Origin: Euzebyales bacterium
GTDB taxonomy: Bacteria; Actinomycetota; Nitriliruptoria; Euzebyales; JAHELV01
Length of the DNA stretch: 35,991 nucleotides
NCBI GenBank assembly: GCA_036374135.1
Contig: DASUUK010000046.1
Location: 1-35,991, forward strand
Direction of reading: 5' to 3'
In this document: piece after piece, positions 14,706 to 34,373 of the stretch
How positions within the stretch are numbered: position 1 is the first letter of the stretch
How the letters are laid out: each line of letters begins with the position of its first letter
Position numbers and translations under genes: made by a program
The notes under the pieces: generated by a model
Told to the model about the DNA's origin: nothing
The model's input: the letters and a program-made list of their open reading frames with translations, nothing else
Databases searched by the model: none

Positions 14706-15374
14706 GTGCCCGCCGGGTTGGCGGCGCTCGGCCTCGACCCACCGCGACCGGTGATCGTGCTCGTCGGCGGGGCCGGCGGACTCGACGACGACGCCGGCGC
14801 GAACCTGCGCCGGCTGTTCAGCGATGGCCTCGTGGCGACCGCGGTGCGCGCAGGGGCCGTGGCGGTTGACGGTGGGACACGGTCAGGGGTCATGCGTCTG
14901 CTCGGTGAAGCGCATCACGCGGCCGGGGCGCGGACCCCGCTCGTCGGCGTCGCGGCGGTCGGCACCGTCGTCATCCCCGACATGCCGCAACCGAGCGAGG
15001 ACGCGGCGCCCCTCGAGCCGCATCACACCCACTTCGTGCTCGTGCCCGGTGACGAATGGGGCGCGGAGGCACCGTGGATCAGCGACGTGGCCACCGCGCT
15101 CGCCAGTGGTGTGCCGTCGGTCACCGTGCTCGTCAACGGCGGCGAGATCGCGTACGACGATATCGCCCGCAGCATTGACGCTGGCCGCCCCGTGCTCACC
15201 GTCGCGGGCACGGGCCGCACGGCCGACCAGTTGGCGGCGGCGCTCAGGGGCGAGGACGCCGATCCGCGTGCCGTCACATTGGCCCGGTCCGGGATGGTGC
15301 GTGCCGTGCCGCTCGACGATCCGCGGGCAGTCGGGCAGATGCTCGCCGGTCTGCTCGATGCTGGCGCGCCGTAG
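14706..15374 (+). CDS. Prokaryotic TRPM-type SLOG (LSDAT) domain protein
   Basis: A Rossmannoid SLOG-superfamily domain of at least 222 residues. The P-loop-like VIVLVGGAGGLDDD, the AVDGGTRSGVMRLLGEA helix start and the later VLVNGGEI and PVLTVAGTGRTADQL motifs match the LSDAT family, related to the N-terminal domain of animal TRPM channels and thought to sense or process nucleotide-derived ligands. The first standard start codon is GTG 14706, but protein-like in-frame sequence reaches back to 14628 (ITTTPFPIRLDHSRVATGI), where an ATC sits where an ATG would be expected; upstream stop codons (TAG 14592) leave no other ATG or GTG. The start is thus unresolved. There is no membrane segment. It lies next to a protease-rich island. 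Confidence 0.8.
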   Translation: MPAGLAALGLDPPRPVIVLVGGAGGLDDDAGANLRRLFSDGLVATAVRAGAVAVDGGTRSGVMRLLGEAHHAAGARTPLVGVAAVGTVVIPDMPQPSEDAAPLEPHHTHFVLVPGDEWGAEAPWISDVATALASGVPSVTVLVNGGEIAYDDIARSIDAGRPVLTVAGTGRTADQLAAALRGEDADPRAVTLARSGMVRAVPLDDPRAVGQMLAGLLDAGAP

Positions 15375-15398: not shown

Positions 15399-15896
15399 TC
15401 AGCCCGGATCATGGCGGCCGACGTGCTCGACAGGCCACCGCCGGCCCCGTGCGGCGACGCAGCGGTCTCTGAGCCGCGTCGCCGTGACATCGGAGCAGTT
15501 GCCTCCGTACGTGTCCAGGTTGGCGCGGAAGAAGCGGGTGGGGGCGTTGTCGCGGACCACGGCGCCGGGAGCGTACTTCTTCGGCAGGCCCGACGGATGC
15601 CCGATGACGTGCACCGCAGCGTTGTCCGGAACCTTCCCGAAGCGCACGTTGGCGAGGGACGCGTCGTTGACGCAGTGCGCCGCCGTCGCGACCAGACTGG
15701 GGTCGACGAGGAAGCCCGTGCAGAACGCGATGGTCGGCTGCTCACGGAACGGCTCGGTGGAGCACAGATCGCGGTCGTCGCCGAACGTCGGTCCCGAGAG
15801 CGTCGAGGTGCCGTCGCCGTTGTCGGTGATGGATCCGGCGGACACCAGCGTGACGACGCGGTGGTCGACCTGCGCTGTTCGTACGTCCGACGCCAT
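15399..15896 (-). pseudogene. Broken trypsin-like serine protease (V8/S1-type)
   Basis: The start ATG 15896 has a good AGGAG ribosome site and the N-terminal half is normal, with the catalytic histidine in VATAAHCV (His74). Then LANVRF joins directly to GKVPDNAAVHVIGHPSG at about residue 86: the 50-70 residues that normally carry the catalytic aspartate are missing, in frame (junction near nt 15640). The distal part runs normally to NLDTYGGN, where the active-site serine motif GGNSGSP should follow, but the frame instead continues into unrelated sequence for 30 codons. Two of three catalytic residues are gone, so the product cannot be an active protease. It lies 3' of the S8-MBL pair on the same strand, with its own ribosome site 178 bases after the MBL stop. 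Confidence 0.72.
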
Positions 15897-16073
15897 TGCG
15901 CTCTCCTGCCTCGTTTCCGACAACCGCGGCCGTGTGACAGGCACCCGGCCCACGGCGCTGCCACCGGTCAGAACGGCAACCGACCGCGTAGATACGCCGC
16001 ACGCGCCAGCGGGGCCGCAGCTGGGCGACCGCCGCGACCATTGACGTCGTCCCCGGGTGGCCCGGGCGAGGCC

Positions 16074-17360
16074 CTACTCGAGGTCCAGCACGAAGCTCGC
16101 GTCCGCGACGAACTCGGCGCGGACGCTCGCAGGATGGTCGCGCTGCCATCCGGAGATGCGCTCGCGTATCTGACGCAGATGCTGTCGGTCGGTCGAGTCG
16201 GCCCCGTCGGTGGAGGCGGTCACCCAGATCGTGAAGGGATCGCCGACCTGCGGCGTCGGAGCGGTCGACGGCCCCTCGCCAACGCGTGATCCGATGATGG
16301 CGTCGATGACCCGGTTGTCGGGGTTGTGATGCGAGCCGTCCGACGGGATGACGTAGTGGTCGGCTGTGATCCGCTCGTAGAACGTGTGATCGCTGTTGTG
16401 CTCCGAACCGTGATGAGGGACCTTGAGGACGTCGACGTGCAGCCCCGCGTCCTGCCTGAGCACGCCCTCCGCCTCGAGTGCGGTCACCACGTCGCCGCCG
16501 AACCCGTCGCCGGTGAGGAGCGCAGTACGCGCACCCTCACGTACCAGGAACATGATGGACGCGAGGTTCGGCACCGTCACGTTGGTCCGGTCGGCGAGCG
16601 CGGCAGCCTGGCCGGCCCGACGAGTGAAGAACACGTCTGCCATCGCGAGTCCGTGTCGATCGGCGTCCAGCAGCAGTGCGTCGACGGCCGCCCGGTTCTC
16701 GGCGACCCATGTCTCCCACTGGGTCTTCAGGGCCTCGAGCTGTTCACGCGTCGGGCCGAGGACCGTGAGAAGCGCATCACCGAGCGCCAGCGGTGCTCCG
16801 CCGGGCTCTGCGACCATCGATCCCCCACCGAACTCCGGGTTGCATGGGATGTCCAGTTGCCCGGGCTCCAACTGGCTGGCCAGCTCGATGCCCTGACTGA
16901 TGCTGGTCGCGATCCCGCCACAGGACTCCGCCGCCTCACGGATCGCCCCGCTGTCCGACGCGGCGAGCACGACCGCGGCCCGCTGCAGCACCCGGATCGG
17001 GGCGCGTCCGTCCATGCCGGTCTGCGCTTCGAAGCCGTTGTGCCAGACCCGGGCGACGTCGGGAGGCCGCCACCGTGAAGGCTCCGGGAACGCGGAGTTG
17101 CCGATCGTGGCGTGGTAGTCGAACACCTTCCAGTCGATCAACAGTTCGAACAGGCCGAGGATGCCCGTGATGTGGTCGGCGTCGATGTGGGAGACGCACA
17201 CCGCATCGAGCCCCTCACCCCGGCGGCGGAGGGCATCCAGACGCGGAAGGACGTTCTCGACGAATGCACCCTTGCGGCCGCCGTCGACCAGGAGGTGCCG
17301 ACCGCCGCTGGACGCCAGGAACGCATCACCATCCGCGGCGTTGAAGAACTCGAGCTTCAT
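16074..17360 (-). CDS. Metallo-beta-lactamase fold hydrolase, ComEC/Rec2-like
   Basis: A 428-residue MBL-fold protein. The metal motif is SHIDADH (His58, Asp60, Asp62, His63), preceded by LLVDGG; a LLTGDG strand and the Rec2-type KVPHHGSEHN motif follow. There are no membrane segments and no signal peptide, so it is a soluble relative of the ComEC nuclease/hydrolase domain. The centre (about residues 100-260) contains a long insertion. ATG 17360 has GAGGAG at seven bases and lies 11 bases after the subtilase stop, so the two genes form an operon. Soluble ComEC-like MBL proteins are recurrent partners of proteases and STAND ATPases in bacterial conflict loci; that role here is inferred. Confidence 0.88.
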   Translation of the reverse strand: MKLEFFNAADGDAFLASSGGRHLLVDGGRKGAFVENVLPRLDALRRRGEGLDAVCVSHIDADHITGILGLFELLIDWKVFDYHATIGNSAFPEPSRWRPPDVARVWHNGFEAQTGMDGRAPIRVLQRAAVVLAASDSGAIREAAESCGGIATSISQGIELASQLEPGQLDIPCNPEFGGGSMVAEPGGAPLALGDALLTVLGPTREQLEALKTQWETWVAENRAAVDALLLDADRHGLAMADVFFTRRAGQAAALADRTNVTVPNLASIMFLVREGARTALLTGDGFGGDVVTALEAEGVLRQDAGLHVDVLKVPHHGSEHNSDHTFYERITADHYVIPSDGSHHNPDNRVIDAIIGSRVGEGPSTAPTPQVGDPFTIWVTASTDGADSTDRQHLRQIRERISGWQRDHPASVRAEFVADASFVLDLE

Positions 17361-17371
17361 GCGCGCGCTCC

Positions 17372-19486
17372 TCAGCCGCGGGGGAGCCCGCTGTACCAAC
17401 GGGTCTCTTCGATGGCGGCCGCGGGATCGATCACGCCGAAGCCGGCGTCCTTGCGCCACTGGTAGTCCGCCCCGGCGAGCGGCCGGGACGTGCGACGCAG
17501 GATCCCGCTGATCTGTGGGGCGGTCAGCCGTGGCTCGATGGCGAGCATGAGGCCCACGACGCCGGCCACCAGAGGACTCGCCATGGACGTCCCGGTCATG
17601 GTGGTCCACCGGTCGGCTGGACCGCGGCGTGCGAATCCGTTCGCGGCGACGATGTCGGTCCCGGGCGCTGCGAGATCCGGCTTCGGCCGTCCGTCGCCGG
17701 TCGGCCCGTCGCTGCTGCTGTTGTTGATCATGCGGTTCGTGTCGTCGTAGTTCGTGACCGACACGACCCGCTGCCCGCACGCCAGCGAGCTGACAGTCGA
17801 TTCGTCGCTGTGCGTGCGCGCCGAGAAGTAGGAGGGGAACCGCCACGCGTTGACGCTGGCGCCGATCGGCCCGAGGCGGCGCGGATCATCGCGTTCGATC
17901 CAGGCGTGGTACCGACCGTCACGGATGTGATGACCTTGCAGGCGGACGAGCCAGGTCCCCGCGCGCACGCCGACCACCTCGCCGCTCGACGCGAAGAATG
18001 GCGCGAGGAACACCGAGATCCGATTCATCCCGTTGGCCGGGTAGTACAGCTCGTTGTAGATGCTGAGCAGCGTGCCGTCGGTGAGCTGGTGGTTCTCGAC
18101 GTGCTCGCCGCCGGTGATCGGGCCCACCCATGGCAGTCCCGGCGGTTTGACCGAGACCTCGACGCGGTCCTGCGACGAGTACCAGACCTCCATCTCGTTC
18201 TCGGACACGTCGGCGACCGTGTTGCCGACGACCTGCCACTCGAGGTCGGACACGAGTCCGGCGGCGGAGATGTGCCCCCGATGGTGGATCGGGCCCGTGA
18301 CGAAGCTGGGGGCCGCGGCGTGCTCCGGGGACACATGACCGGCGTTGCCGGCTGCCACGCAGACGGCACGCCCCGGATATGACAGCGCCGCGTCGATCCA
18401 CCGGCTGACAGCGCTCGTTCCGTCGTGCGCATGGCCGTTGGTCCCGAGGCTGATGTTGATCGACACGGGCAGCGGACGGTCCAGACCGCGCTCTCGGCCC
18501 ATCTCGCCCGCCATGGCGAACAGGTAGTCGACGGCGTGCGCGAGGCGGGTCGAGTCGTAGAACGAGCGGCGGCGGTCCTCGGCGTCGGGATCGAGTGCCA
18601 GCAGCACGGCGGCGATCGGCGCGCGCCGGCACACGCCGTGCGCGCCGGCGGCGATGCTCGCGACGTGCGTCCCGTGCGACCCCGGCACCCGTTGGGACTG
18701 CGGCTCCAGCCGCCACGCCGGCAGACCACCCTGCCGCTCGGACGCGAGCGCGGCGTCGAGCTCGGGTTTGTGGAACTCGGCACCATAGTCCTGGATGCCC
18801 GGCGCCGAGGCGCCTCGTCGCACGGCGGGCGACACCCTGGCCGTGCCGGCCTGGTCCCAGATGCGCGCGAACCTCGTCCCGTGGTCGTCGACGAACTCGG
18901 GGTGCGAGAAGTCGAAACCTTCGACGTCGATGATCCCGATGAGGACGTCCTCGCCGTACCCGTGGACGTCGGCGTCGCCGAAGGCGCGCTCGGCGGACGG
19001 TGGAGCGGTCGACCGATCCACCGATCGGTCCGGTGTCGGAGCCGACAGCGGCTGCCCCGGCTCGATGTAGGCGACCTCGGGTCGCCGTTCGAGCGCCGCG
19101 ACCTGATCGAGTGTCAGCTCAGCGGTCAGTTGGTCGTCTCGCCGCGCCGTCACGGCCCTGCCGCTGCGTGCGGCGACGGTCGAGTCGGTGATCACCGGCG
19201 ACGCGGCGGCGTCCCGCAGGCGCACGAACACCGAGACCTCCACCTCCGGCACCGTTGGCGCACCGCGAGCGTGGACGGTGTCCCGTTCGTCCAACCCGGC
19301 CGCAGTCGTCAGCCGGACCCGGTCACCACGAACGGCTGGCGTCGTCCCGACCTGCGCGTCACTCAGCGCCCGCAGCGCCGCGGCGTGCTCGGCACGGATG
19401 ACGTTGTGCCTCGTGCTGCCGGTCGCCATGAGTTGCAGCTTCGGATCGATGCGACGCACGGATCCGCGAACGTTCGGCGGTCTCAT
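17372..19486 (-). CDS. S8 family subtilisin-like serine peptidase
   Basis: A 704-residue subtilase. An N-terminal region of about 180 residues includes a propeptide-like stretch (LTAELTLDQVAALERRPEVAYIEPG). The catalytic residues are Asp187 (IIDVEGFDF), His271 (SHGTHVASIAAG), the oxyanion Asn381 (VAAGNAGH) and Ser634 (TGTSMASP). Between Asn and Ser a roughly 150-residue beta-rich insertion (EVWYSSQDRVEVSVKPPG onward) resembles the jelly-roll insert of Csp-type subtilases. No signal peptide or transport motif is visible, so an intracellular enzyme is likely. The ATG at 19486 is well spaced from GGAG. It heads the S8-MBL operon; upstream lies a 134-base gap to the TauE-family gene on the same strand. 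Confidence 0.93.
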   Translation of the reverse strand: MRPPNVRGSVRRIDPKLQLMATGSTRHNVIRAEHAAALRALSDAQVGTTPAVRGDRVRLTTAAGLDERDTVHARGAPTVPEVEVSVFVRLRDAAASPVITDSTVAARSGRAVTARRDDQLTAELTLDQVAALERRPEVAYIEPGQPLSAPTPDRSVDRSTAPPSAERAFGDADVHGYGEDVLIGIIDVEGFDFSHPEFVDDHGTRFARIWDQAGTARVSPAVRRGASAPGIQDYGAEFHKPELDAALASERQGGLPAWRLEPQSQRVPGSHGTHVASIAAGAHGVCRRAPIAAVLLALDPDAEDRRRSFYDSTRLAHAVDYLFAMAGEMGRERGLDRPLPVSINISLGTNGHAHDGTSAVSRWIDAALSYPGRAVCVAAGNAGHVSPEHAAAPSFVTGPIHHRGHISAAGLVSDLEWQVVGNTVADVSENEMEVWYSSQDRVEVSVKPPGLPWVGPITGGEHVENHQLTDGTLLSIYNELYYPANGMNRISVFLAPFFASSGEVVGVRAGTWLVRLQGHHIRDGRYHAWIERDDPRRLGPIGASVNAWRFPSYFSARTHSDESTVSSLACGQRVVSVTNYDDTNRMINNSSSDGPTGDGRPKPDLAAPGTDIVAANGFARRGPADRWTTMTGTSMASPLVAGVVGLMLAIEPRLTAPQISGILRRTSRPLAGADYQWRKDAGFGVIDPAAAIEETRWYSGLPRG

Positions 19487-19620
19487 CACAGCTCCGGTCA
19501 GAGGCGGTGTGCGGCGCCACGCGCATCGACCCGATCATCGTGACGACCGCCCGCTGCGCCCCGCGCGTTGGTGTCGCTGAGGCGCACAGTATGGTCGCCA
19601 CATCGGCGCAGTCAAGGCCG

Positions 19621-20337
19621 TCACAGGCGCACGAGCAGTCGCGCCGTGTAGCCCGCCATGACCGCCCAGAACAGCGTCCGGTACCCCCGCTCGCCGAGCT
19701 CGCGGTTGATGTAGCGACCGGATAGCGTGCCGACGATCATCAGCGGGATGGCAGCCACCGCAATGCGCAGATCCGTCGCACTCAACAGGCTGGCCTCGGC
19801 GAACACGGCCGCCTTGGTCGCGTCGCCGGCCAGCGAGGCCAGCGACGCGGCACCGACGAAGTGCCGGCGGTCCATCCGCAGGTTGCGGATGGCGACGCCC
19901 TTCAGCGGCCCGGACGTGCCGGAGAAGCCGGAGGTCGCGCCCGACACGAACGCGAGCGTCGGCGCTCCCACCCGCTGCAGCGCGATCAGGTCATATCGCT
20001 CCGCGAGCAGCGTCCCGACGAACATTGCGATCACCGTGACGGTGACGAGCGAGTCGGGAGCCGCGACGAGGAGGCTGGCGCCGACGGCCGCGCCGAGCGA
20101 GATCACCACAATGACGATCAACGCGCGACGGTACGGCAGTGTCGCGCGGTACGCCGCCACCTTGACGACGTTGTTGGCCGCGAGCAGCAGCGCCGCCAGC
20201 GCGATGCCGTGCTTCGTGCCGATGATCAGCGCCAGCGCCGGCACGAGGATCAACGAGCCTCCCAGGCCGGCCGCCGCCGACACGGTGAACGAGGAGAACA
20301 CGGCCACCAGGGCCAGCACCGCGGCAAGTGGCGTCAT
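19621..20337 (-). CDS. TauE/SafE family sulfite exporter-like membrane protein
   Basis: A 238-residue polytopic membrane protein with about seven hydrophobic segments. The N-terminal AAAGLGGSLILVPAL repeat motif and the second, related SGATSGFSGTSGPLKG motif after the middle mark the two halves of TauE/SafE anion exporters. It may export sulfite, sulfonates or other organic anions, but the substrate cannot be told. It splits the protease cluster and has its own promoter (TTGACA, 17 bases, TAGCGT at 20474-20446), so it may be a bystander. No strong ribosome site precedes ATG 20337. Confidence 0.88.
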   Translation of the reverse strand: MTPLAAVLALVAVFSSFTVSAAAGLGGSLILVPALALIIGTKHGIALAALLLAANNVVKVAAYRATLPYRRALIVIVVISLGAAVGASLLVAAPDSLVTVTVIAMFVGTLLAERYDLIALQRVGAPTLAFVSGATSGFSGTSGPLKGVAIRNLRMDRRHFVGAASLASLAGDATKAAVFAEASLLSATDLRIAVAAIPLMIVGTLSGRYINRELGERGYRTLFWAVMAGYTARLLVRL

Positions 20338-20445
20338 CGGGCGGCTACGCAGGCGATCGGAGGCACGAGGACCACCACAGACGCAATCGCCACCGCCGCG
20401 CCGGTGCGATGGCCGACCGTGACAATCCTCGCCTGAAGTGACGAC

Positions 20446-20474
20446 ACGCTATGGGGTGCAGCAATGTGTGTCAA
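20446..20474 (-). promoter_or_regulatory. Sigma-70-type promoter for the TauE-family gene
   Basis: On the minus strand a perfect -35 TTGACA (20474-20469), a 17-base spacer and a -10 TAGCGT (20451-20446) point towards the gene starting at 20337, leaving a leader of about 100 bases. Confidence 0.6.
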
Positions 20475-20639
20475 TGGCAGCGAAGGCGGCAGAAAGTGGC
20501 GCTGATCAGGCCGTGCCCGCTGACGTCTCGGTCGGCGGGGTCACGACGTCGATGTCCCATCACCGGTATCAGTCCTGCCCACCCGGGCTCTTGATCAGCG
20601 AACGGCACGTCGCGACGGTGACCACTCGATGAATTCAGC

Positions 20640-20668
20640 TTGTGCAATCAGGTACCGGAATGTATGCA
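20640..20668 (+). promoter_or_regulatory. Candidate promoter of the protease run
   Basis: TTGTGC (20640-20645), a 17-base spacer and TATGCA (20663-20668) lie about 75 bases before the start of the EAD-trypsin gene, in locally AT-richer DNA. Both hexamers match the consensus only in part. Confidence 0.35.
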
Positions 20669-20744
20669 TCGTGCCAGCGGTCACGAGCTGCCGGCGTGCG
20701 GGCCGGCGTGAGCGCTCGCTGCATCATTGACGGAGGGCAGCCAC

Positions 20745-22010
20745 GTGACGACGGATTTCTCCGGATATCTGACCGCTGAACAGCTGCGTGTCGTGCACAA
20801 CGCTGCGGTCGCGGCCGGGCTCACCCGCTCAGACGACCATCTCGACGTGTTGCTGGCGGGTCTGCCACGCGACTTCGTTGGATCGCTCCCCGGATCCGGC
20901 GAAGACCCGGCCGCCCGCCTGTCGGCGCAGCTCAGGACGCTCAACACCGTCCACAACCTCAGCGACGGCAACGTGCCGCTGTTGACCTGGCTGCAACAGG
21001 CGACCGCGCTCGCAAGCGACGGCCGGCCGGCGGACGTGTTCGAGGCCGCGATCGACCACGTGAGCCACACGACGGCCGCGGTGCCGCCGGCGGTCGCCGC
21101 GCAGCTGCGCGCGGCGCCACCACGAGCAGGCGCGGGCCCGGACACGCGCGGTGGACCGATCACGCGGGGGACTCCCACCGAGGCGCCGCCGGCCATCAAC
21201 ACCGACGTCCTGCCCGAGGCGTTGGTCGCCGGATCCGATCAGACGGTGGAGATAGCGTTCCTGCAGGGCGCGCTGACCAGCGCCAAGTCGGTGGTCAAGC
21301 TGCTGGTGCACCGGCACGAGGAAGGTGACCCGGTGTTCGAGGCCGGTGACGAGCCATGGCTCATCAACGGCACGGGATGGTTCGTCGGCCCGGATCTCGT
21401 GATCACCAACCACCACGTCATCAATGCCCGCCGCACGGCCCCCGTTGCGGAAGATGACGCGTCACCCGAGGACTTCCGGCTGCAGGCGGAGCACACCACC
21501 GTCATCTTCGACTACCTCGAGGACCAGGTGCCGTCGGTCACGGCCGACACCGGCGACGACGCGCTGCTGGCCGCCGACAAGGAGCTCGACTTCGCGATCC
21601 TGCGCGTTCCTCCCGCCGACCCGCCGCGCGACCCGCTCAACCTGCGGAGGAACCCCATCCGCAAACGTCCACAGCAGGCACTCGGTACCCGGGTCAACGT
21701 CCTGCAGCACCCGAACGGCGACCCGATGCGGCTCGGCTTCCGCGACAACTTCGTCGTGCTCGGCGACAACGACTGGCTCGCGTACCTGACCGACACCCAG
21801 TTCGGCTCGTCCGGTTCACCCGTGTGCGACGACGGTTGGTTCGTCGCCGCGCTGCACTCCGGATCGCGCAGCATCTCGTCCACCGGACTGGAGATCCGCG
21901 GCCAGAGGGTGCGTCGGGAGAACTACGGCATCCCGATCAGCAGGATCCTCACGCACCTCGAGGAGAACCTGCCCGACCTGCACTTGGAGATCCTCGCCGC
22001 CCAACCCTGA
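20745..22010 (+). CDS. Trypsin-like serine protease with N-terminal EAD1-like domain
   Basis: A 421-residue protein; GTG 20745 follows GGAGGG at seven bases. Residues 1-90 form an all-helical domain (LTAEQLRVVHNAAVAAGL, then a run ending VPLLTWLQQATALA) whose pattern resembles effector-associated domain 1, a death-like adaptor found in bacterial conflict systems. After a Pro/Thr-rich linker (about 110-155) comes a V8/trypsin fold with His224 (ITNHHVIN), Asp282 (KELDFAILRV) and Ser356 (QFGSSGSPV); the triad is complete. There is no signal peptide, so it is probably a cytoplasmic effector recruited through its N-terminal domain. It is the first gene of the plus-strand protease run. The EAD assignment is by pattern only and is less certain than the protease call. 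Confidence 0.87.
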   Translation: MTTDFSGYLTAEQLRVVHNAAVAAGLTRSDDHLDVLLAGLPRDFVGSLPGSGEDPAARLSAQLRTLNTVHNLSDGNVPLLTWLQQATALASDGRPADVFEAAIDHVSHTTAAVPPAVAAQLRAAPPRAGAGPDTRGGPITRGTPTEAPPAINTDVLPEALVAGSDQTVEIAFLQGALTSAKSVVKLLVHRHEEGDPVFEAGDEPWLINGTGWFVGPDLVITNHHVINARRTAPVAEDDASPEDFRLQAEHTTVIFDYLEDQVPSVTADTGDDALLAADKELDFAILRVPPADPPRDPLNLRRNPIRKRPQQALGTRVNVLQHPNGDPMRLGFRDNFVVLGDNDWLAYLTDTQFGSSGSPVCDDGWFVAALHSGSRSISSTGLEIRGQRVRRENYGIPISRILTHLEENLPDLHLEILAAQP

Positions 22011-22043
22011 GAGCCCGAACGACCCCCGGAACAGGAGATGACG

Positions 22044-22913
22044 ATGTCAGACATCACGTTCGAACCCCGCCGATGTGCGACCCACGACATCAGCATGGCG
22101 GACCGCTCCCGCCTCGCCGCGCTGGAAGGCCGCTACCTCGACGAGACCCGCATCGCCGAGGCGGACCTCAGAGTTGAGATCGCGGTGGCGTTCATCCACG
22201 TGGTCGACGGCGACGCGGGAACCGTCACGGCCGAGCAGCGGCACAAGCAGATCGAGGTGATGAACGAGGCGTTCGAGTTCATGGGCATCTCGTTCACCTT
22301 CGACGAGAACGACGTCACGGTGGTAGACGACCCGGCCTTCTTCGCGATGGGACACGGCTCGCTGCGTGAGCGCAACTGCAAGTCTCAGAACCAGATGCTG
22401 GATCCGACGCAGGGCTTGAACTTCTACACCGCGGAGCCCGGCGGTGGCCTGCTCGGATGGGCGACGTTCCCCGTTGACATGGAAGGCGACCCCGACATGG
22501 ACGGCGTCGTGATGCTCCATACGACCCTGCCCGACGGCGCCATGGCTCCCTACAACCTCGGGCTGACCGCCGTGCACGAGGTCGGGCACTGGCTGGGCCT
22601 GTACCACACGTTCCAGGACGGCTGCTTCGGCCTCGGCGACGAGGTGAGCGACACACCCGCGCACGGCGGGCCCAACTTCGGCAAGCCCGCGGACGAGGAC
22701 CAGCCCCACAACCTGTGCGAGTCGGCTCCGGCGGGAGCGGACTGCCCCACCCACAACTACATGAACTACGTCGACGACGACTGGATGAACGAGTTCACGC
22801 CAGGACAGAAGGAGCGTGCGTGGGCGCAGATCGGCATGTTCCGGTCCGACCTCCTGGCCGCCGGCGCCGAGGAAGCGGGGTTCAAGGAGGCCGGTCAGGC
22901 GTACGTGTGGTGA
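22044..22913 (+). CDS. M43 (pappalysin/cytophagalysin) zinc metalloprotease
   Basis: A 289-residue metzincin. The extended zinc motif HEVGHWLGLYH (His178, Glu179, His182, His188) and the Met-turn in NYMNYVDDDWMNEFTPGQKERAW (Met240) are diagnostic, with cysteines around NCKSQ, DGCFG, NLCES and ADCPT as in the family. ATG 22044 is best spaced from AGGAG; ATG 22038 directly abuts it. Family members are usually secreted, but the N-terminus here (MSDITFEPRRCATHD) is no signal peptide, which is notable. The 33-base gap to the trypsin gene and the shared strand suggest one operon. Substrate unknown. Confidence 0.92.
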   Translation: MSDITFEPRRCATHDISMADRSRLAALEGRYLDETRIAEADLRVEIAVAFIHVVDGDAGTVTAEQRHKQIEVMNEAFEFMGISFTFDENDVTVVDDPAFFAMGHGSLRERNCKSQNQMLDPTQGLNFYTAEPGGGLLGWATFPVDMEGDPDMDGVVMLHTTLPDGAMAPYNLGLTAVHEVGHWLGLYHTFQDGCFGLGDEVSDTPAHGGPNFGKPADEDQPHNLCESAPAGADCPTHNYMNYVDDDWMNEFTPGQKERAWAQIGMFRSDLLAAGAEEAGFKEAGQAYVW

Positions 22914-22968
22914 CGCCGGGCGCCCTGCACGACACTCCCCTGCCGGAGCCGGCAGGCACGAGGTGACG

Positions 22969-24612
22969 ATGGTCCGGGTGCTGCTGGACGCCGATGGCCT
23001 GCTGCGGAGGTTCGGCCGCCTGGATCCGGACGCCGCTGGGCTCGCCACGGCGTTGACGCGTCTGCAGGAGCGTGTCGCCCGCCGGCCTCGACCGCGAGCC
23101 GCGTCGGCGGCCGAACGGGACCGTCAGCTGATGCTCGGACTTGACGTGGCGGCCGTGCGGTACACCGGCGCCGCAACCGCCTCGGACGGCCACCACGTCG
23201 CCGGCCTGCCGCTCGTCAGCCTGCCGGACGCGGCCGACCTGGGACCCGGCGACCTGTACTTCACCGCTGCCCACACGCGGCTCGCCGCCGCGCTGGGACA
23301 GGGCGCGAGCGGCTACATCGTGGGCCTCGACCCGGCGGTGAGCGATCGCGTCGTCGACGTCTCGACGGTGCCTCGTCTGGTCGAGGAGGCGTTGCGGCTG
23401 CCCACCGCCCGACCTCGATCGGCGGCGACGCGGCGCGGCGGCCTCCTGGCCATCGACGTCCCGTCCCGGGCCCATGCGCGCGCCGAGGTACTCGATGTCA
23501 TCCGTGCCGATCCCAATGCCGACTGGGTGGTCCTGGGAGCGCACCTGCTGCTGTACACCGAGGACCCCGATCTGGAGGATCAACTGGCCGAGCGTCCGGG
23601 CGTCGACCGCCTGTCCTACCGCGTCAGTCGTGACGACCTCCTCGTCTTCCTGCCCGGCGTCGCGGATGGCGACGGCGACGACGGCGGCAGCGGCGGCGGA
23701 GCGGGGCGCAGGGGCGCCGACGACGGGGCGGGGCGCCGGGGCGCCGGACCCGGTGGGCAGCGCGCCACCGACGCCGGGGCGGGCGGCCGCCGTGCGGCGG
23801 GCACACCCACGCCCAGCGGCGATTCGGGCGTGCTGTACGGGCGCGACGGCGTGATCGTGCGGGAGCAGGCGTCTGGTGGACCGCGCTCGGCCGGGGCGGC
23901 ATCGGAGATCTCGGCCGGGAACACGAGCGGGACGTGGTGGAGGTGGCACGACGTGCGACGGCGGTCGTTGGACATCGCCGGTGCCGGGGTAGCGGACGAG
24001 GGTCGACACCTCACGGCGACCGTGGACGACGACGAGGTCGAGACGTTCCGGGCGCGTGTCACCGACCTGGCCGCGACACTGCGTCCACGACTGCGGCCCC
24101 CGATCGGCGAGACGCTCGTGTCGGCGCTGCGGGAACTGGCCGGTCCAGCTGCCGTCGCCGATGCATGGCCGGGGGACGCACTCGGTTCCCCGGAGGACCC
24201 GCCGCGCGACGTCGCGTGGCAGACACCGTATGCCGATGCCGAGTCCGATGAGCTCGTGATCCTGCGCCACGACATGACGGCGGTCGCCGGTGCGCCGGAG
24301 GTTGCTCACGCATCTGACGTCCCAGATCCTGCCGCCCTCGTCCGTCCGGTCGCCGTGGCGCTGGCGACCGCCGAGTTGCTCAGCCGCCGTCCGGCGGCAC
24401 CCGGCGCACTGCACATCCTGCAGCTTCCTGCGTCTGGTGACGGCGGCGCGGGACCGTCACCGGAGGCGCTGTTCCTACTCGCCAGCGAGCGCAACCGTGT
24501 GGGCGCGGTCGCGACGTTCCCGTCGGACGCCGACGACGCGACCGCCCTGCGAACGGTCGCGCGCCTTGCGACGCCGGCATCGTCGCGCGGACGCCCAGGC
24601 GGTGACGCATGA
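22969..24612 (+). CDS. Unrecognised two-part protein of the protease run
   Basis: A 547-residue protein that I cannot place in a family. ATG 22969 (MVRVLLDADGLLRR) follows GAGG closely; GTG 22963 is an alternative. Residues 1-228 look like one alpha/beta region (DLYFTAAHTRLAAALG, then YIVGLDPAVSDRVVDVST, and DWVVLGAHLLLYTEDPDLE). Residues about 231-286 are a low-complexity Gly/Arg/Ala/Asp linker. Residues 287-547 are a second region with a VLYGRDGVIVREQ start, a TWWRWHDVRRRS segment and a C-terminal part ending LHILQLPASG and FLLASERNRVGAVATF. No membrane segment, signal peptide or known catalytic motif is visible. It sits between the M43 and M28 genes (55-base gaps either side), so it is probably cotranscribed with them and may be their substrate, scaffold or inhibitor; that is inference. 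Confidence 0.75.
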   Translation: MVRVLLDADGLLRRFGRLDPDAAGLATALTRLQERVARRPRPRAASAAERDRQLMLGLDVAAVRYTGAATASDGHHVAGLPLVSLPDAADLGPGDLYFTAAHTRLAAALGQGASGYIVGLDPAVSDRVVDVSTVPRLVEEALRLPTARPRSAATRRGGLLAIDVPSRAHARAEVLDVIRADPNADWVVLGAHLLLYTEDPDLEDQLAERPGVDRLSYRVSRDDLLVFLPGVADGDGDDGGSGGGAGRRGADDGAGRRGAGPGGQRATDAGAGGRRAAGTPTPSGDSGVLYGRDGVIVREQASGGPRSAGAASEISAGNTSGTWWRWHDVRRRSLDIAGAGVADEGRHLTATVDDDEVETFRARVTDLAATLRPRLRPPIGETLVSALRELAGPAAVADAWPGDALGSPEDPPRDVAWQTPYADAESDELVILRHDMTAVAGAPEVAHASDVPDPAALVRPVAVALATAELLSRRPAAPGALHILQLPASGDGGAGPSPEALFLLASERNRVGAVATFPSDADDATALRTVARLATPASSRGRPGGDA

Positions 24613-24667
24613 AGCCGCGGGCGACGTCGCCTCCGCGACCGACGGCCACGACATGCGGGAGACCGAC

Positions 24668-25927
24668 ATGCAGTACCTGGTGACCGACGCCGCCGCCGCA
24701 GCACGACGCGGGTCCGGCGACCAGACGGGCGTCCGGTGGACGCGGTTCGACGATCAGACGATCGTCTGGGGCGCCGACCTGCGATCAGCCGCGCGCGAGG
24801 CCTCGCGGGGTGCCGACGGCCGTTCCGAGGACGTCGCGCCATCCGAAGCGGAACAGCTCGCACTGGTGGTCCAGGTCGGACGCGCCTTCCAGGACGCCAA
24901 TCCTGACGTTCCGGTGGTTCTGGACAAGGGGCGGTACCTGGTCATCGACGTCGGTCGAACCGCGCCGGCCACGGACGACACGTGCTGGACGGTGCGCCCA
25001 CTGGTGCCCGACACGGTGGTGCTGGCCCGCCGACCCGCGACGCGGCGTTCGCCGACACCGTGGGTGATCCCGTTGGTCAACGCCGCGTCGGAGGCGTCGT
25101 TCACGACCGCGCTCGAGCACCTGGCCGGGCTGCCGACCCGCCACTCGACGAGCCAGCACTTCGACGACGCTGCTGAGTGGGCGTCCCAGCGACTGCGGGA
25201 CGTCGGCTACGACGTACGCCGCGATCCGGTCACGCTGCCCGACGGCACGCGCTCCTCGAACGTTCTCATGGACCAGCCCGGCGTGGGACCCGAGCCACGC
25301 GATCTCGTGGTCGTCACGGCACACCTCGACTCGGTGAACACGCTTGGCGGGCCGTCCGCCGACGCGCCCGGCGCTGACGACAACGCCAGTGGCGCGGCGG
25401 CTCTGCTCGAGATCGCGTCTGCGTTCGCCGACCACTCCGCTGTGCACGATCTGCGCCTCATCCTGTTCGGCGGCGAGGAGCAGGGACTGCACGGCAGCCG
25501 CCAACACGTCGCTGGGATGTCCGCCGTCGACCGCGCCCGCACGACGGCGGTCATCAACATGGACATGGTCGGCACGTTGAACACGACGGAGCCGACCGTG
25601 CTCCTCGAGGGAGCGACCGTGTCACAGGCACTGATCACCGACCTGGCGAACGCGGCGGCGACGTACACGGCGCTGGCCGTGCAGACGTCGCTCACGCCGT
25701 TCGCAAGCGACCACGTTCCGTTCATCGATGTCGGCGTGCCTGCCGTCCTGACGATCGAGGGCGCTGACCGCTCCAACGCCAACGTGCACACGGTCTCCGA
25801 CACCGTCGAGCACATCCATGCGCCGCTCGCGCTCGACATCATCCGCATGAACGTCGCCGCCGCGGCGACGTACCTGGGCCACGACGACAGTGGCGCGACT
25901 CACGCCACCATCCGCCGAGCAGTCTAA
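24668..25927 (+). CDS. M28 family zinc peptidase
   Basis: A 419-residue protein. A 130-residue N-terminal region of unknown type (FDDQTIVWGADL, then PVVLDKGRYLVIDVG) precedes an M28 aminopeptidase-type domain. The zinc ligands and base are His219 (VTAHLDSV), Asp237 (GADDNASGA), Glu270-Glu271 (FGGEEQGLHGS), Asp299 (NMDMVG) and His374 (NVHTVSD), all present. ATG 24668 has GGGAG at six bases; GTG 24602 and ATG 24653 are alternatives. There is no signal peptide, unlike most M28 peptidases. It closes the plus-strand run and converges with the TIR-STAND gene after 52 bases. Confidence 0.9.
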   Translation: MQYLVTDAAAAARRGSGDQTGVRWTRFDDQTIVWGADLRSAAREASRGADGRSEDVAPSEAEQLALVVQVGRAFQDANPDVPVVLDKGRYLVIDVGRTAPATDDTCWTVRPLVPDTVVLARRPATRRSPTPWVIPLVNAASEASFTTALEHLAGLPTRHSTSQHFDDAAEWASQRLRDVGYDVRRDPVTLPDGTRSSNVLMDQPGVGPEPRDLVVVTAHLDSVNTLGGPSADAPGADDNASGAAALLEIASAFADHSAVHDLRLILFGGEEQGLHGSRQHVAGMSAVDRARTTAVINMDMVGTLNTTEPTVLLEGATVSQALITDLANAAATYTALAVQTSLTPFASDHVPFIDVGVPAVLTIEGADRSNANVHTVSDTVEHIHAPLALDIIRMNVAAAATYLGHDDSGATHATIRRAV

Positions 25928-25979: not shown

Positions 25980-28900
25980 CTACTCGAGGTCGAAGGTCGC
26001 CCGCTCGCTGGATGTCAGGTCGCGCGTCGTACGGTGATCCACCAGATCCACGAGCTCGGCATCGGCCACGCAGAGCCGGCAGCGGAACAGCCACGCGGTC
26101 CCACTCGGGCCGGTGGTCAGCACCAGCTGCCCGGTCCGATCATCGACAGCATCGACGAGGCCGCGTCGGGTCGTGCGTAGCACCGACTGAACCTCACCCG
26201 ACCCGGCGTTCCAGACGCGGGCGCTGCCATCGAGACTGGACGTCAGCACGGTGTCGCCGTCGGCGGTGAACCGGGCGGACACCACGTCATCTCGGTGCCC
26301 GCTCAACGTGGTGAACGCCGCCGTGTCGCCGAGGGTGTAGACCCATGCATCACCCGAGGCCCCTGCGAAGACGGCCTGCGTTCCGTCCGGGCTGACGTCC
26401 ACAGCGTTGATGGTGCCCTGACCAGCCGGGAACGTGCGAACGTGGTGGCCGTCATCCGTCGCCCACATCTGACCGTCGGAGTCGCGACCGACGGCGATGA
26501 GCGCATCCGCCGACGGCGTGAACGCGAGGCCGAGCACCTCGTGTCCGTGCGTGACCTCCAGCCGTCGATGGACCCCCACCCGATCGTCGATGTCCCACAC
26601 GACAACGGTGCCGTCGGCTGTGTCGGTGGCGGTGGCGAGCATGCTTCCATCGGGTGCGAGCCGCGAGAGGACGGTCGGACCGGTCTGGCTGGCCGATAAC
26701 CCGATGCGCCGTCCCGTGTCGGCGTCCCAGGCACCGACCGTGCCGTCTTCGCCGGTCGACACGACGACGCGTCCGTCCGGAGTGAACACCGCATCGCTCA
26801 CTGCGCCCTCGTGACCTGTCAACGCGTGGATCTCTTGCCCGGTGGCCACGTCCCACACCCGAGTGATCCCGTCCAGTCCCCCGGTGACCAGACGGCGGCT
26901 GCGGGAGTCGAACGAGGCGCCCACCAGGGGGCTCGCACCTTCGTCGAGGACGCTGAGCTCACGACCGTCGGATGCGCGCCACACCCGCGCCGTCCCATCG
27001 TTGCCGATCGTTGTCACGAACCGACCGTCCGGACTGAGTGCCGCGGTCCCGACGCCACCCGGCTGTGAGAAGACACGTGCCTCCTCGGACGTCGTGCTCC
27101 AGATGCGCGCGGTGCCGTCAAAGCTCGCAGAGACGACGGTCCGACCATCCGGGCTGAAGCGGCCGCTCGACACCGAATTCCCGTGACCCCGCATCGTCAG
27201 TATCAGGTCGCCGCGCAGCCGCAGCAGACCACTGTCGTCACGCCGACGGCTCATGTCCCAGATCCGCACGGTGGTGTCCGCGCCCGTCGTCGCGAGCCGC
27301 AGCCCATCCGCCGAGAAGTCGGCGTCGCGTACGAAGCCGTCGTGATCAGGCATCTCGCGCACGACCGTGCCGGATCCGACGTCCCACACCCGCACCGTGC
27401 CCTCGGTGCCAGTGGTCACCAGCACGTCCCCACCGGGGCTGAAGACCGCGCGGATGACCCGCCCGACCTGGCCCGGCAGTGCCTCGCGGAGCGCACCGGA
27501 CGGCACCGAGAAGATCCTCGCCGTCCCGTCGTCGCTGACGGTGACCGCGATGGAACCGTCCGGGCTGGCGACCACATCACGCACACGGTCGGTGTGGCCG
27601 TCGAGAGGTGCGAGGACCTCGTCGGACGACCAGCGCCAGATGCGGCCGGTACCGTCGAAGCTCGCGGTCACGACCACGTCTCGACCGGGCACGAACGTCG
27701 CCGCCGCGACCACGTCGCGATGGTCTCGCAGGACGCCGACCCTGACGCCTGTGTCGCTGCGCCATACAGCGGCCGTGCCGTCATCGCTGGCGGTGACGAC
27801 GAGAGAGCCGTCGTCGTTGAACCGCGCGGATCGTAGAGCTGCGCTGTGTCCCCGGAGGACCGCGCGGAGCCTGCCGGTCGCGACGTCCCACACGATGGCC
27901 GTGCCGTCGCTGCCGCCGGTGACCAGCGCCTTCCCATCGGGGCTGAACTCGGCGGCGCGCACCGCACCGTCGTGGCCTGTGAGCTCGCGCTCGGTCTCGC
28001 CGGTGCGTGGGTTCCACAGCCACACGCCACCGTCCTCCGAGGCGGCGACAGCGAGACGTCCCGACGGGTCGAGGTCTGCGACGTTGAGGCGGCTGCCGTC
28101 ACCGGGGAACCGGACGCGCACGTTGGAGGCGATCAGCCCCTCCCGCAGTGTTCGCAGTGCCTCGTCCGTGTGACTGACGTCCCACGCCTCGCGGCCCAGC
28201 AGCAGAGTGAGCTCGGGATCGACGTCGAGCGTCGCCTGTGCCGCCAACGCCAGGCCTCGCGATCGTGCGGTGGCGGAGCGGCGCAGCACGAGCGCGGTCA
28301 AGAACAGCGAGCCCGCGAGGCCGAGCAGCAGGACGACGGCGACCGCGCGGAACAGGCGGGCTGCTTTCCGCTGGCCCTCGGCGATCTGGCGCGCGTCGTC
28401 GAGCTCTCGCTGCCGTTGTTCCTCCGCAGCGCGTCGCTGCTGGTCCCGTACCGCGACGCTGGCGTCGAAGAACGCCGTCTCGGTGTCGCTGAGCGAGACA
28501 TGTCGTGACGCGGTCCACGCCAGCACCTCGTCGAGGCGGGCGCCCCGATACAGCGCACCGTCGTCGTGATCGAGCCGTACCCACTCCTGTGCCGCCTCGG
28601 TCATGCGACGGTGGATCAGCAGGCTCGCGCGGTCCTCCTCGACCCAGGACTTCAACCGCGGCCAGGCGCGGATGAGCGCCTCGTGCGACACGTCGACCCA
28701 GCGGTCCTCAGGGCCCGATCCACTCGTGATGAGCAGCCGCGCGTCCACCAGCTGTGACACGATGTGCTCGAACGCGACCCGATCCGACGCCGCCGAATCG
28801 AGCTCGGCCCATCGAGCGCGGCGCCGCGTGGCCTCGGTCGCGTCGCCAGGCTGGGTGAGCCGGAGGATGGCGTCGCGCATCACCTGCTGCTGTGCCGGGT

Positions 28901-32946: not shown

Positions 32947-33020
32947 GCCGGGATAGCTCAGCAGGTCAGAGCAACGCTCTTGTAAAGCGAAGGTCGCCGG
33001 TTCGAATCCGGCTCCCGGCT
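32947..33020 (+). tRNA. tRNA-Thr(TGT)
   Basis: Acceptor GCCGGGA pairs with TCCCGGC, discriminator T. The D-arm is TAGCTCAGCAGGTCAGAGC, the anticodon loop CTTGTAA gives anticodon TGT, and the T-arm contains GGTTCGAATCC. CCA is not encoded. The integrase gene on the other strand ends inside this tRNA, which marks its 3' half as the attachment site of an integrative element. Confidence 0.95.
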
Positions 33021-34229
33021 CTGCATTTCCGCTGGTGAGGGCGATTTCGTGGTCTGTTCGTCGGCGCGTGGTCCGTCGGCCGACCACAGATCGACCACAA
33101 CGTCGTCCGAGGGGGCGCCGTCGCCGGGCCCTGAAAGCGAACGTCGCGCGTCCCGCGTCGTCCGGTACGTCGCGTCGAGCGCATCGGCGAACGCGTCGTC
33201 GAGCGACGGGAAAAGGTGCCCGTAGCGGTCGAGTGTGACGGTGATGCTCGAGTGGCCGAGCCGCTGCTGGATCGCCTTCGGGTGTCCGCCCTCGGCGATC
33301 AACAGCGCCGCGTTCGAGTGGCGAAGGTCGTGGAATCGCACGCCGTGGAGGTGCTCGGACAGCGTCCGGCGGACCGTCGGCTTGAAGATGCGTTGGTAGT
33401 AGTTCGAGTGGCGCATCGGCCCGCCCTGCGGAGCGGGGAACACGGGCGTGTCGGGGCTCGCGTCGCCGAGGTGTTCGCGGAGCTGCTCGACGAGGAACGC
33501 CGGCGGCTTGACAGCGCGCCGGGAGCTGTAGGACTTCGGGTCGTGCTCGACCAGGTCGCCGCGAACCTCCGACACAGCCGTCAGCACGACGACCTCGGCG
33601 TCGTCCAGCCGCAGGTGGCGGCGGCGCAGCGCGGCGATCTCGCCTGCGCGTAGCCCGGTGTAGGCGGCGAAGCGGACCATCAGGTCGTACGGCTCGGGCA
33701 TGCCGTCAGCCAGCGTGGCGATCTGGTCGGCGGTCAGGAAGTGCATCTCCTCGTGCGGCATCGGCGGCAGCTTGACGCCGACGCACGGGTTCTTGCGGAT
33801 GGCGCCGAGCTCGACCGCTAGGTCCAGCGTCTGCTTGGGCCTGCCGACCGCCTTGCGCACCTGCGCCGGTGAGACGCCGTCGCCGAGCATGTCGGTGATG
33901 AACCGGCGGACACGACGCTGGTCGATCGCGCCGACCGGCGTCTCCCCCAGCCGCGGCAGCACGTGGTAGCGCAACGTGTTCTCGTAGTTCATCAGCGTCT
34001 TGGGCTTCAGGTGGTACAGCGACGCGACCCACTCCTCGGCGATCGGCCCCAGCGGCCGGCGGGCGTTGTCGGGGCTGACGTACTCGCCGCGCTGCACGTC
34101 GACCGCGACGCGCGCCAGGAACTCATTCGCCGCCTTCTTGGTCGGGAACGCCTTGCCTCGCTGGTGGCCTTCGGGGTCCCGGTAGCGCGCCTCCCAGCTC
34201 CCCGACGCCTTCTGACGGACCGATCCCAT
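32958..34229 (-). CDS. Tyrosine recombinase/integrase (tRNA-Thr integrated element)
   Basis: A 423-residue phage-type integrase. An N-terminal AP2-like DNA-binding part (GSWEARYRDPEGHQRGKAFPTKKAANEFL), a SAM-like core-binding domain (LKPKTLMNYENTLRYHVLPRLGE) and a catalytic domain with Arg in TGLRAGEI, HDLRH, a GHSSIT helix and the Tyr in LDRYGH are complete. ATG 34229 follows GGGAGG at eight bases; an in-frame ATG at 34346 lies inside the IS and is not native. The last 20 or so residues (REPDSNRRPSLYKSVAL) are the antisense reading of tRNA-Thr, the classic sign of integration into the tRNA 3' end. The IS1380 element begins 24 bases upstream of the start, so the native promoter is displaced. 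Confidence 0.93.
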   Translation of the reverse strand: MGSVRQKASGSWEARYRDPEGHQRGKAFPTKKAANEFLARVAVDVQRGEYVSPDNARRPLGPIAEEWVASLYHLKPKTLMNYENTLRYHVLPRLGETPVGAIDQRRVRRFITDMLGDGVSPAQVRKAVGRPKQTLDLAVELGAIRKNPCVGVKLPPMPHEEMHFLTADQIATLADGMPEPYDLMVRFAAYTGLRAGEIAALRRRHLRLDDAEVVVLTAVSEVRGDLVEHDPKSYSSRRAVKPPAFLVEQLREHLGDASPDTPVFPAPQGGPMRHSNYYQRIFKPTVRRTLSEHLHGVRFHDLRHSNAALLIAEGGHPKAIQQRLGHSSITVTLDRYGHLFPSLDDAFADALDATYRTTRDARRSLSGPGDGAPSDDVVVDLWSADGPRADEQTTKSPSPAEMQSREPDSNRRPSLYKSVALTC

Positions 34230-34248
34230 GGCAGACACCTCCCCCCTA

Positions 34249-34253
34249 CTAAG
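34249..34253. repeat. Target site duplication, left copy (CTAAG)
   Basis: CTAAG directly abuts the left inverted repeat and matches the bases directly after the right one (35852-35856). Removing the IS and one copy joins CCCCCCTACTAAG to GGGAATCGAACCCC. Confidence 0.85.
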
Positions 34254-34270
34254 CCTGGATCCACCGTTTC
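34254..34270 (+). repeat. IS left terminal inverted repeat
   Basis: CCTGGATCCACCGTTTC, identical to the reverse complement of 35835-35851. Confidence 0.92.
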
Positions 34271-34373
34271 TGAGCTGAGCGGCTGACGGTGGTTGCACGA
34301 GAAATGCCTCCTGACCAGGGAGGATGCGGGTTACCACACCAAGCATCCACTTGATCCAGGAGGCACTCTCAGG

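What the first reader, a model, noticed from the sequence alone, without database searches (positions are those of the whole stretch)
15399..25927. Multi-protease cassette without signal peptides: S8 + MBL facing EAD-trypsin + M43 + unknown + M28
Within 10.5 kb there are four intact peptidases of unrelated classes (S8, trypsin, M43, M28), a ComEC-like metallo-beta-lactamase, a broken trypsin and an unrecognised partner. None of the intact peptidases shows a signal peptide, although M43 and M28 enzymes are usually secreted. The trypsin carries an EAD1-like helical adaptor. Established knowledge: EAD-trypsin, MBL and TIR/STAND proteins recur in NTP-dependent bacterial conflict systems. Inference: this is a proteolytic effector module of a defence or programmed-death island, and the mixture of M43 and M28 with EAD-trypsin may be undescribed.
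Basis: partly seen in the sequence, partly recalled or inferred. Interest (0 to 1): 0.82.

Follow-up and report, generated by a model that had tools for sequence, protein, structure and literature searches.

The report
Subtilisin-nuclease gene pair beside protease cluster
The window holds two separate things: a two-gene pair, also found in many other bacteria, in which a subtilisin-type protease probably switches on a DNA-cutting enzyme (likely a virus-defence switch), and beside it a row of other proteases that we did not find elsewhere.

Summary
The listed peptidases, the MBL and the broken trypsin are there; none of the intact ones has a strongly hydrophobic N-terminus. But they are not one cassette. 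The minus-strand S8 and MBL genes are a conserved two-gene unit: of 61 gated-type MBL relatives with upstream sequence, 56 have an S8 ending within 600 nt upstream on the same strand (50 of 56 within 40 nt; 29 overlap by 4 nt), in records from 10 phyla; 0 of 14 ComEC-type controls do. The MBL belongs to the ComEC-like 'gated' nucleases (Avs1a/HamM/CanC): intact metal motif, two low-confidence insertions absent from ComEC. The S8 is a Csp-like subtilase (best fold match CspA, Z 34.9). Best reading: the S8 opens the MBL pro-nuclease, a two-gene defence switch without fused sensor. Activity, defence and trigger are untested. Tuck et al. 2025 describe trypsin and caspase partners and mention 'other diverse families'; their main text names no subtilisin. 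The plus-strand trypsin carries EAD5, not EAD1; its order with M43, X and M28 was not found elsewhere, X has no convincing homologue, and no second EAD5 was found in the assembly. Verdict: new variant of a known kind; the single 'proteolytic cassette' is not supported.

The parts
17372..19486 (-). S8 subtilase, 704 aa: N-terminal ~80 aa with a motif shared by its relatives, I9-like prodomain, catalytic domain with jelly-roll insertion; Asp187, His271, Ser634 (catalytic by motif) invariant in 33 sequences
   Evidence: Pfam PF00082; alignment A5; model pLDDT 83.7; fold match CspA Z 34.9, CspB Z 33.0
16074..17360 (-). Gated ComEC-type MBL nuclease (428 aa), 11 nt downstream of the S8 stop; metal motif H58-D60-D62-H63, D285, H316/H317 intact
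   Evidence: PADLOC LmuA 1.7e-42 and Avs1a 2.2e-36; alignment A3; model pLDDT 84.6; ComEC 9ic4 Z 22.2; spacing
16902..17030 (-). Insertion 1 of the MBL (about residues 111-153), low model confidence
   Evidence: pLDDT 52-59 for residues 111-150; ComEC 28-31 residues between the same anchors, here 82
16575..16700 (-). Insertion 2 of the MBL (about residues 221-262), low model confidence
   Evidence: pLDDT 38-51 for residues 231-260; ComEC 11-13 residues between the same anchors, here 50
15399..15896 (-). Short open piece of a trypsin-like gene, probably a remnant; not a recurring part of the pair
   Evidence: Trypsin 29.8 bits over 32 residues; full-length relative of 320 aa in Bradyrhizobium; not found in the stretches held of the other S8-MBL loci
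20745..22010 (+). EAD5-trypsin (421 aa), His, Asp and Ser motifs readable by eye
   Evidence: PF19957 2.9e-24 and PF13365 7e-18
22038..22913 (+). M43 metallopeptidase (291 aa), HExxHxxGxxH motif; open frame only 9 codons longer upstream, so no room for a signal peptide
   Evidence: PF05572 46.2 bits; frame length; hydropathy
22969..24612 (+). X, orphan frame of 547 aa, unknown
   Evidence: no family over a cut-off or convincing homologue
24602..25927 (+). M28 peptidase with an N-terminal extension; start unsure (24602, 24653 or 24668)
   Evidence: PF04389 133.9 bits

Best explanation
The S8 and MBL genes (17372-19486 and 16074-17360, minus strand) are a self-contained two-gene zymogen switch. 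The MBL is a ComEC-type nuclease kept off by two insertions near its active site. The S8, a cytoplasmic Csp-like subtilase that carries an I9-like prodomain, is held inactive until infection or DNA stress, then cuts one or both MBL insertions; the freed nuclease degrades DNA and stops or kills the cell. Shown by sequence or model: pairing, order, close spacing, intact catalytic motifs, correlated trees, insertions at the Avs1a sites. Inferred: inhibition by insertions and prodomain, cleavage, DNase activity, defence, cytoplasmic location, and that the S8 or its N-terminal segment is the sensor. The plus-strand EAD5-trypsin-M43-X-M28 row is a separate, probably lineage-specific block in the same variable region.
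For: Pairing: 56 of 61 gated-type MBL loci with at least 300 nt upstream have an S8 frame ending within 600 nt upstream on the same strand; 50 of 56 within 40 nt; 29 overlap by 4 nt; by the listing, 0 of 14 ComEC-type loci do. Records from ten phyla. In 17 plasmid regions that I picked from the MBL hits, partly because S8 was named there: 11 S8 upstream, 2 caspase-hypothetical-MBL, 3 Avs or NACHT type, 1 unannotated. S8 and MBL tree distances correlate, r 0.905 (window plus 49 pairs; highest of 2000 permutations 0.326); r 0.835 among 38 class I rows, window included (highest 0.263). Both insertions are long in S8-type MBLs (medians 82 and 52 residues, n 61) and Avs-type ones (77 and 61, n 3), short in ComEC (29.5 and 11, n 4), and are low-confidence parts of the model. 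S8 fold: CspA Z 34.9 over 514 residues, CspB Z 33.0 over 438. CspB's prodomain stays bound and occludes the site, and CspB activity is essential for efficient cleavage of the SleC hydrolase (PMC3567191, abstract). HamM and Avs1a are activated by cleavage of such insertions (PMC12799240).
Against: No assay. The scan query was built from S8-paired MBLs plus the window, so 56 of 61 is not a rate among all gated MBLs. Near-copies inflate counts (several Cupriavidus, Bradyrhizobium). Six of the 56 have gaps of 146-572 nt, some with split or broken frames (L042, L068, L083, L090, L091, L094). Three full-length gated-type MBLs (L072, L079, L081) have no S8 upstream. The tree correlation does not remove shared vertical descent. 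The Ile of Avs1a's 'PISAKQG' is not conserved at the aligned column; a column two further on is I/V/L/M in 87% of 53 S8-type MBLs, and no cleavage-like conserved site was seen in the middle of insertion 2. Neighbourhoods are mixed; defence-gene enrichment is weak. No relative confirmed in viral contigs. No third gene was seen to recur next to the pair.
Confidence: 0.6

Rival explanations
1. One reading: all genes of 15.4-25.9 kb form one proteolytic effector module recruited through the EAD.
For: Side-by-side position, no signal-like N-termini, no counterpart of the MBL, EAD5 and LSDAT and only a weak one of the glycosyltransferase in three genus mates, TIR-nSTAND1 neighbour.
Against: S8-MBL recurs without the plus-strand genes in the stretches held; outside the window's genome M43 and M28 matches were not neighbours in 296 genomes; a TauE gene separates the blocks; one EAD5 only found in the genome.
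Confidence: 0.06
2. The S8 is the brake, not the switch: it degrades or inactivates the MBL nuclease, as in a toxin-antitoxin pair.
For: Protease first in the operon with translational overlap, as many antitoxins are (recalled).
Against: Related MBLs are activated by cleavage by partner proteases (PMC12799240); the insertions sit at the same places.
Confidence: 0.12
3. The pair serves a cellular process other than defence, for example DNA turnover, programmed lysis or development.
For: Many neighbours are metabolic genes; no recurring sensor gene seen; ComEC is a DNA-uptake enzyme.
Against: Sporadic presence (6 of 396 phylum genomes with an MBL match at 1e-8, own included; at most 4 candidates per genome scored), frequent on plasmids, defence relatives in the MBL family.
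Confidence: 0.17
4. The plus-strand row is a variant of the NucA-trypsin systems in which the nuclease is missing or elsewhere and M43 and M28 act as downstream proteases.
For: Of four plasmid regions opened around related trypsins, two have a NucA-type endonuclease gene next to it; in one of these (L028) EAD5 was confirmed.
Against: No NucA domain listed for the nine proteins of 15.4-30.3 kb that were scanned; order not found elsewhere.
Confidence: 0.2

Closest known systems
Nuclease-protease pairs of AVAST type 1, Hachiman (HamMAB), Lamassu, DRT (Tuck et al. 2025, PMC12799240)
   Same: ComEC-like MBL with two insertions and a co-encoded protease
   Different: Protease is S8, shows no fused known sensor domain, and lies upstream of the nuclease; in the paper the trypsin is fused to a defence enzyme and the nuclease gene is upstream
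Canu, caspase-nuclease (PMC12799240)
   Same: Stand-alone protease gene upstream of a gated MBL nuclease; caspase-hypothetical-MBL rows were seen in this family here too
   Different: Subtilase instead of caspase; no gene between protease and nuclease; the window's MBL falls in an S8-type clade (support 99*)
Csp germination proteases CspA/CspB/CspC
   Same: Prodomain, subtilase domain, jelly-roll insertion; CspB activity is needed for efficient cleavage of the SleC hydrolase
   Different: 22-25% identity in the structural alignments; extra N-terminal ~80 aa; partner is a predicted nuclease; records from ten phyla
EAD5-trypsins and NucA-trypsin systems (Kaur et al. 2020, PMC7159879)
   Same: EAD5 fused to a trypsin
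   Different: No NucA found here; M43, X and M28 follow; no second EAD5 found in the genome

Membership tests
Proteolytically gated MBL nucleases (HamM, Avs1a, CanC) | ComEC-like MBL fold with intact metal motif | tested here: met
Proteolytically gated MBL nucleases (HamM, Avs1a, CanC) | Two insertions relative to ComEC | tested here: met
   82 and 50 residues against 28-31 and 11-13 in four ComEC domains
Proteolytically gated MBL nucleases (HamM, Avs1a, CanC) | Insertions block the active site | not testable with these tools
   low model confidence there; coordinates not at hand
Proteolytically gated MBL nucleases (HamM, Avs1a, CanC) | Adjacent, co-inherited protease gene | tested here: met
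Proteolytically gated MBL nucleases (HamM, Avs1a, CanC) | Conserved cleavage residues in both insertions | tested here: inconclusive
   hydrophobic column near site 1 only
Proteolytically gated MBL nucleases (HamM, Avs1a, CanC) | DNA cleavage only after proteolysis | not testable with these tools
   needs biochemistry
AVAST type 1 | Avs1a over the curated score, with an Avs1b trypsin-STAND partner | tested here: not met
   142.2 against 420 bits; partner is S8
Canu | Caspase partner, as in the described loci | tested here: not met
   S8 directly before the MBL
Csp-type subtilases | Prodomain plus subtilase plus jelly-roll insertion | tested here: met
   by predicted fold: CspA Z 34.9, rmsd 3.4, 514 aligned, model 83-701
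Csp-type subtilases | Curated CspBA family score | tested here: not met
   101.6 against 1250 bits
EAD1 proteins | EAD1 at the trypsin N-terminus | tested here: not met
   EAD5 85.8 bits; EAD1 not listed at E up to 1
EAD5 proteins | EAD5 over the curated cut-off | tested here: met
   85.8 against 27 bits
EAD-recruited conflict systems (Kaur et al. 2020) | Cognate EAD on a core component in the same genome | tested here: not met
   one EAD5 match, E up to 1, in an assembly of 96% completeness
NucA-trypsin system (System 3) | NucA endonuclease encoded nearby | tested here: not met
   none listed for the nine proteins of 15.4-30.3 kb scanned

The most novel reading that the evidence does not exclude
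S8-MBL is an undescribed stand-alone immune system of at least ten phyla in which a Csp-like subtilase is both sensor and activating protease: a signal relieves its prodomain, it cuts two insertions of the nuclease, and the cell's DNA is destroyed. Two genes would then hold a whole two-step zymogen cascade, built on the same subtilase fold that clostridial spores use in germination.
Probability: 0.38. Interest if true: 0.82.

Novelty: new variant of a known kind. Interest (0 to 1): 0.6.

Why it matters
If true, a third protease class (subtilases, after trypsins and caspases) gates the same nuclease family, and does so without a fused known sensor, so a minimal two-gene system would let the open question of how such proteases are triggered be tested directly. 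It also suggests that Csp-like subtilases may be more general zymogen activators in bacteria, with spore germination as one use. It shows that a cluster of unrelated peptidases need not be one machine: the recurring unit here is two genes.

Tried and rejected
One cassette: rejected. EAD1: rejected for EAD5. The short trypsin piece as third partner of the pair: not found in the stretches held of the other loci; its relatives opened lie by other genes. S8 partnership as ancestral state of the gated nucleases: two trees placed Avs-type and Canu-type MBLs inside the S8-type ones, but holding all S8-type rows, the window and the three rows without S8 together gave a tree 13.97 log units better than the free one (AU p 0.709), so that reading is dropped. 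Spread in viruses: 43 stretches matched a pattern in viral contigs, none encoded a relative. X: three short matches with stops inside, weak PDB and PHROG matches, not similar to M28. The integrase at 32958-34346 as the element carrying the pair: the 3' end of the tRNA-Thr faces right, so its element more likely lies to the right (inference). PADLOC scan of neighbours: 89 of 157 picked neighbour frames gave 32 models at 1e-10 (24 of the 25 shown were hit by one protein each), against 0 for 52 of 74 control frames; several models describe one family, so this is weak. L072, L079, L081 and L095 showed no S8 by profile upstream; looking at their upstream frames by eye named no protease. L096 has an S8 but its MBL is broken and it was counted as a miss. 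Among the ComEC-type controls L099 has a weak S8 match (43 bits) about 900 nt away on the other strand.

Limits of the searches: the genome search scores only its best first-look candidates per genome (3, 4, 6, 40), so absences there are not proof. Loci hold at most 6 kb on each side.

Papers: PMC12799240: abstract, Results, Discussion and figure legends read and main text searched for 'subtil' and 'peptidase'; supplement and figures not seen, so S8 may be marked in its Fig. 4A or S2. PMC7159879: passages only. PMC3567191: abstract and outline only. Nine paper searches ran (listings and abstract starts seen); in the seven aimed at an S8-MBL or subtilisin defence pair no title or abstract start named one.
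Full report
WHAT IS THERE. The window (70.3% GC) is contig C46 of a 3.98 Mb assembly of 115 contigs, probably of an actinomycete (inference: the same-phylum locus L014 is nearly identical to L040, a Solirubrobacterales record). In 15.4-25.9 kb I find the open trypsin piece, MBL, S8, a TauE/SafE permease gene, EAD5-trypsin, M43, X and M28, then a convergent TIR-nSTAND1-WD40 gene (25980-30326). The S8 start is best put at 19486, because its relatives share an N-terminal motif that lies upstream of the inner ATG. DNA matches to three genus mates end near window position 14.5 kb; only short scattered matches follow up to 32.9 kb (40 candidates per genome scored). LSDAT, MBL and EAD5 have no counterpart in the genus mates, and the glycosyltransferase only a weak one in one of them. 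So this is a variable region.

TWO BLOCKS, NOT ONE. The minus-strand S8-MBL pair recurs; the plus-strand row does not, as far as tested. X matched only itself in 66 class genomes, and in 396 phylum genomes itself and three short stretches with stops inside. M43 matched in 10 of 296 and M28 in 95 of 296 genomes, own included. Of the nine other genomes with M43, six also have M28 matches, all on other contigs or more than 300 kb away (positions compared by eye; at most 6 M28 candidates per genome scored). None of the loci brought in by the MBL scan carries, in the stretch held, a relative of the EAD5-trypsin, M43, X, M28 or the STAND protein at 1e-4.

THE S8-MBL PAIR. A tblastn of the MBL in 72,556 plasmid records gave 42 records; the best are rhizobial plasmids with an S8 gene next to the MBL, and the S8 alone hits many of the same records at 46-52% identity. 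A scan of one genome for each of 84,980 species with an MBL alignment confirmed 86 relatives, of which the best 80 were kept. By profile score and frame length, 66 are gated-type (L031-L096) and 14 ComEC-type (L097-L110). Of the 66, 5 have under 300 nt upstream; of the other 61, 56 have an S8 frame ending within 600 nt upstream on the same strand. Fifty of 56 lie within 40 nt and 29 overlap by 4 nt; the six wider gaps include split or broken frames. The five misses are L072, L079, L081, L095 and L096; L096 has an S8 but a broken MBL. In the listing none of the 14 ComEC-type loci has an S8 there; one has a weak match about 900 nt off on the other strand. The 56 come from records of ten phyla. 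Counts include near-copies. The query was built from S8-paired MBLs and the window, so this is not a rate for the whole nuclease family. Seventeen plasmid regions that I chose from the MBL hits gave 11 S8, 2 caspase, 3 Avs or NACHT partners and 1 unannotated.

CO-INHERITANCE. Distances on the S8 and MBL trees correlate at r 0.905 for the window and 49 of the 56 pairs (short or broken ones dropped), against a highest value of 0.326 in 2000 permutations; r 0.835 among 38 class I rows (highest 0.263); 23 of 47 splits are shared. Common vertical descent is not removed by this.

ANATOMY. MBL: metal-binding residues invariant in 36 sequences; model pLDDT 84.6 with residues 111-150 and 231-260 low; best solved fold ComEC 9ic4, Z 22.2, rmsd 2.8, 242 aligned, tied within 1 by the phosphorylcholine esterase CbpE (21.9). 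Between fixed anchors the S8-type MBLs hold 82 and 52 residues (medians, n 61), Avs-type 77 and 61 (n 3, one of them placed there by me because it lies next to a NACHT gene), Canu-type 47 and 51 (n 2), three gated-type without S8 73 and 32, ComEC 29.5 and 11 (n 4). HamM and Avs1a carry two gating insertions (PMC12799240), and in the alignment the Avs1a insertions fall at these two places. In the two Avs1a genes compared, 'ISA' occurs at 134/235 and 136/237; the paper's cut residues in another Avs1a are I134 and I234. The aligned S8-type column is not conserved, but window residue Ile154, two columns on, is I, V, L or M in 87% of 53 rows. That is a hint, not a cleavage site. S8: Asp187, His271 and Ser634 invariant in 33 sequences (catalytic roles from the subtilisin motifs, recalled); model pLDDT 83.7; fold matches CspA Z 34.9, CspC-CspA Z 34.0, CspB Z 33.0; Csp proteins are also the best sequence matches in the PDB. 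None of 38 class I S8 proteins over 600 aa has a strongly hydrophobic N-terminus.

MECHANISM. Shown elsewhere: HamM is a proenzyme that becomes a strong DNase when the partner protease cuts it; Avs1a is cut during infection and needs the cut-site residues for defence; CanC becomes a potent nuclease with the caspase complex CanAB (PMC12799240). [quoted passage not shown] Inferred here: the S8 is a prodomain-restrained subtilase that opens the MBL. I saw no recurring third gene, so the trigger probably acts on the S8 itself, perhaps through its N-terminal segment. That the purpose is defence is inferred from the MBL's relatives, the sporadic and often plasmid-borne distribution and some defence-type neighbours (a caspase gene; a Shedu-type gene; SIR2 and FRG genes). 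Other loci sit among metabolic genes, and the PADLOC comparison of neighbours with the control is only weakly in favour.

PLUS-STRAND ROW. EAD5-trypsin is a known layout: L028 and L009 have it. Of four plasmid regions opened around related trypsins, two encode a NucA-type endonuclease beside it. Kaur et al. 2020 place EAD5 among the domains that recruit effectors, as a rule with a second copy of the same EAD on the core system (passages); here a second copy was not found. Three of nine M43 relatives from other genomes show a signal-like N-terminus, three could not be resolved and three showed none, so a cytoplasmic M43 is perhaps unusual but the sample is small. X may be a real gene, given its spacing to both neighbours, but its codon signature is weak.

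NOVELTY AND VERDICT. The nuclease family and the principle are known. The main text of PMC12799240 names no subtilisin (it says only that other clades go with proteases of 'other diverse families'); its supplement was not open to me. I therefore call S8-MBL a new variant of a known kind, strongly supported as a genetic unit and moderately as a mechanism.

Noticed in passing
14706-15374 (+): LSDAT_prok (SLOG domain of TRPM type, PF18171, 7.9e-67), near the left end of the variable region; no match in 8 relatives tested nor in the other S8-MBL stretches held.
   Followed up: partly
25980-30326 (-): TIR-nSTAND1-WD40 protein of 1448 aa, convergent with M28; a self-contained candidate sensor-effector.
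   Followed up: no
32947-34346: tRNA-Thr (TGT) overlapping the 3' end of a tyrosine integrase gene, so an integrated element probably extends to the right, off the contig; a DDE transposase follows at 34293-35669.
   Followed up: partly
L137:2522-6038, L139:2586-6068: Caspase, hypothetical and MBL genes in a row on Streptomyces and Rhizobium plasmids: likely Canu-type loci.
   Followed up: no
L028:6011-10675: Bradyrhizobium plasmid row of trypsin-NucA fusion, EAD5-trypsin and a further trypsin, next to dpdA/dpdB and queC/D/E genes.
   Followed up: no
L023:12017-15478: Beside an S8-MBL pair, another S8 gene next to an ATP-binding protein gene on a Rhizobium plasmid.
   Followed up: no
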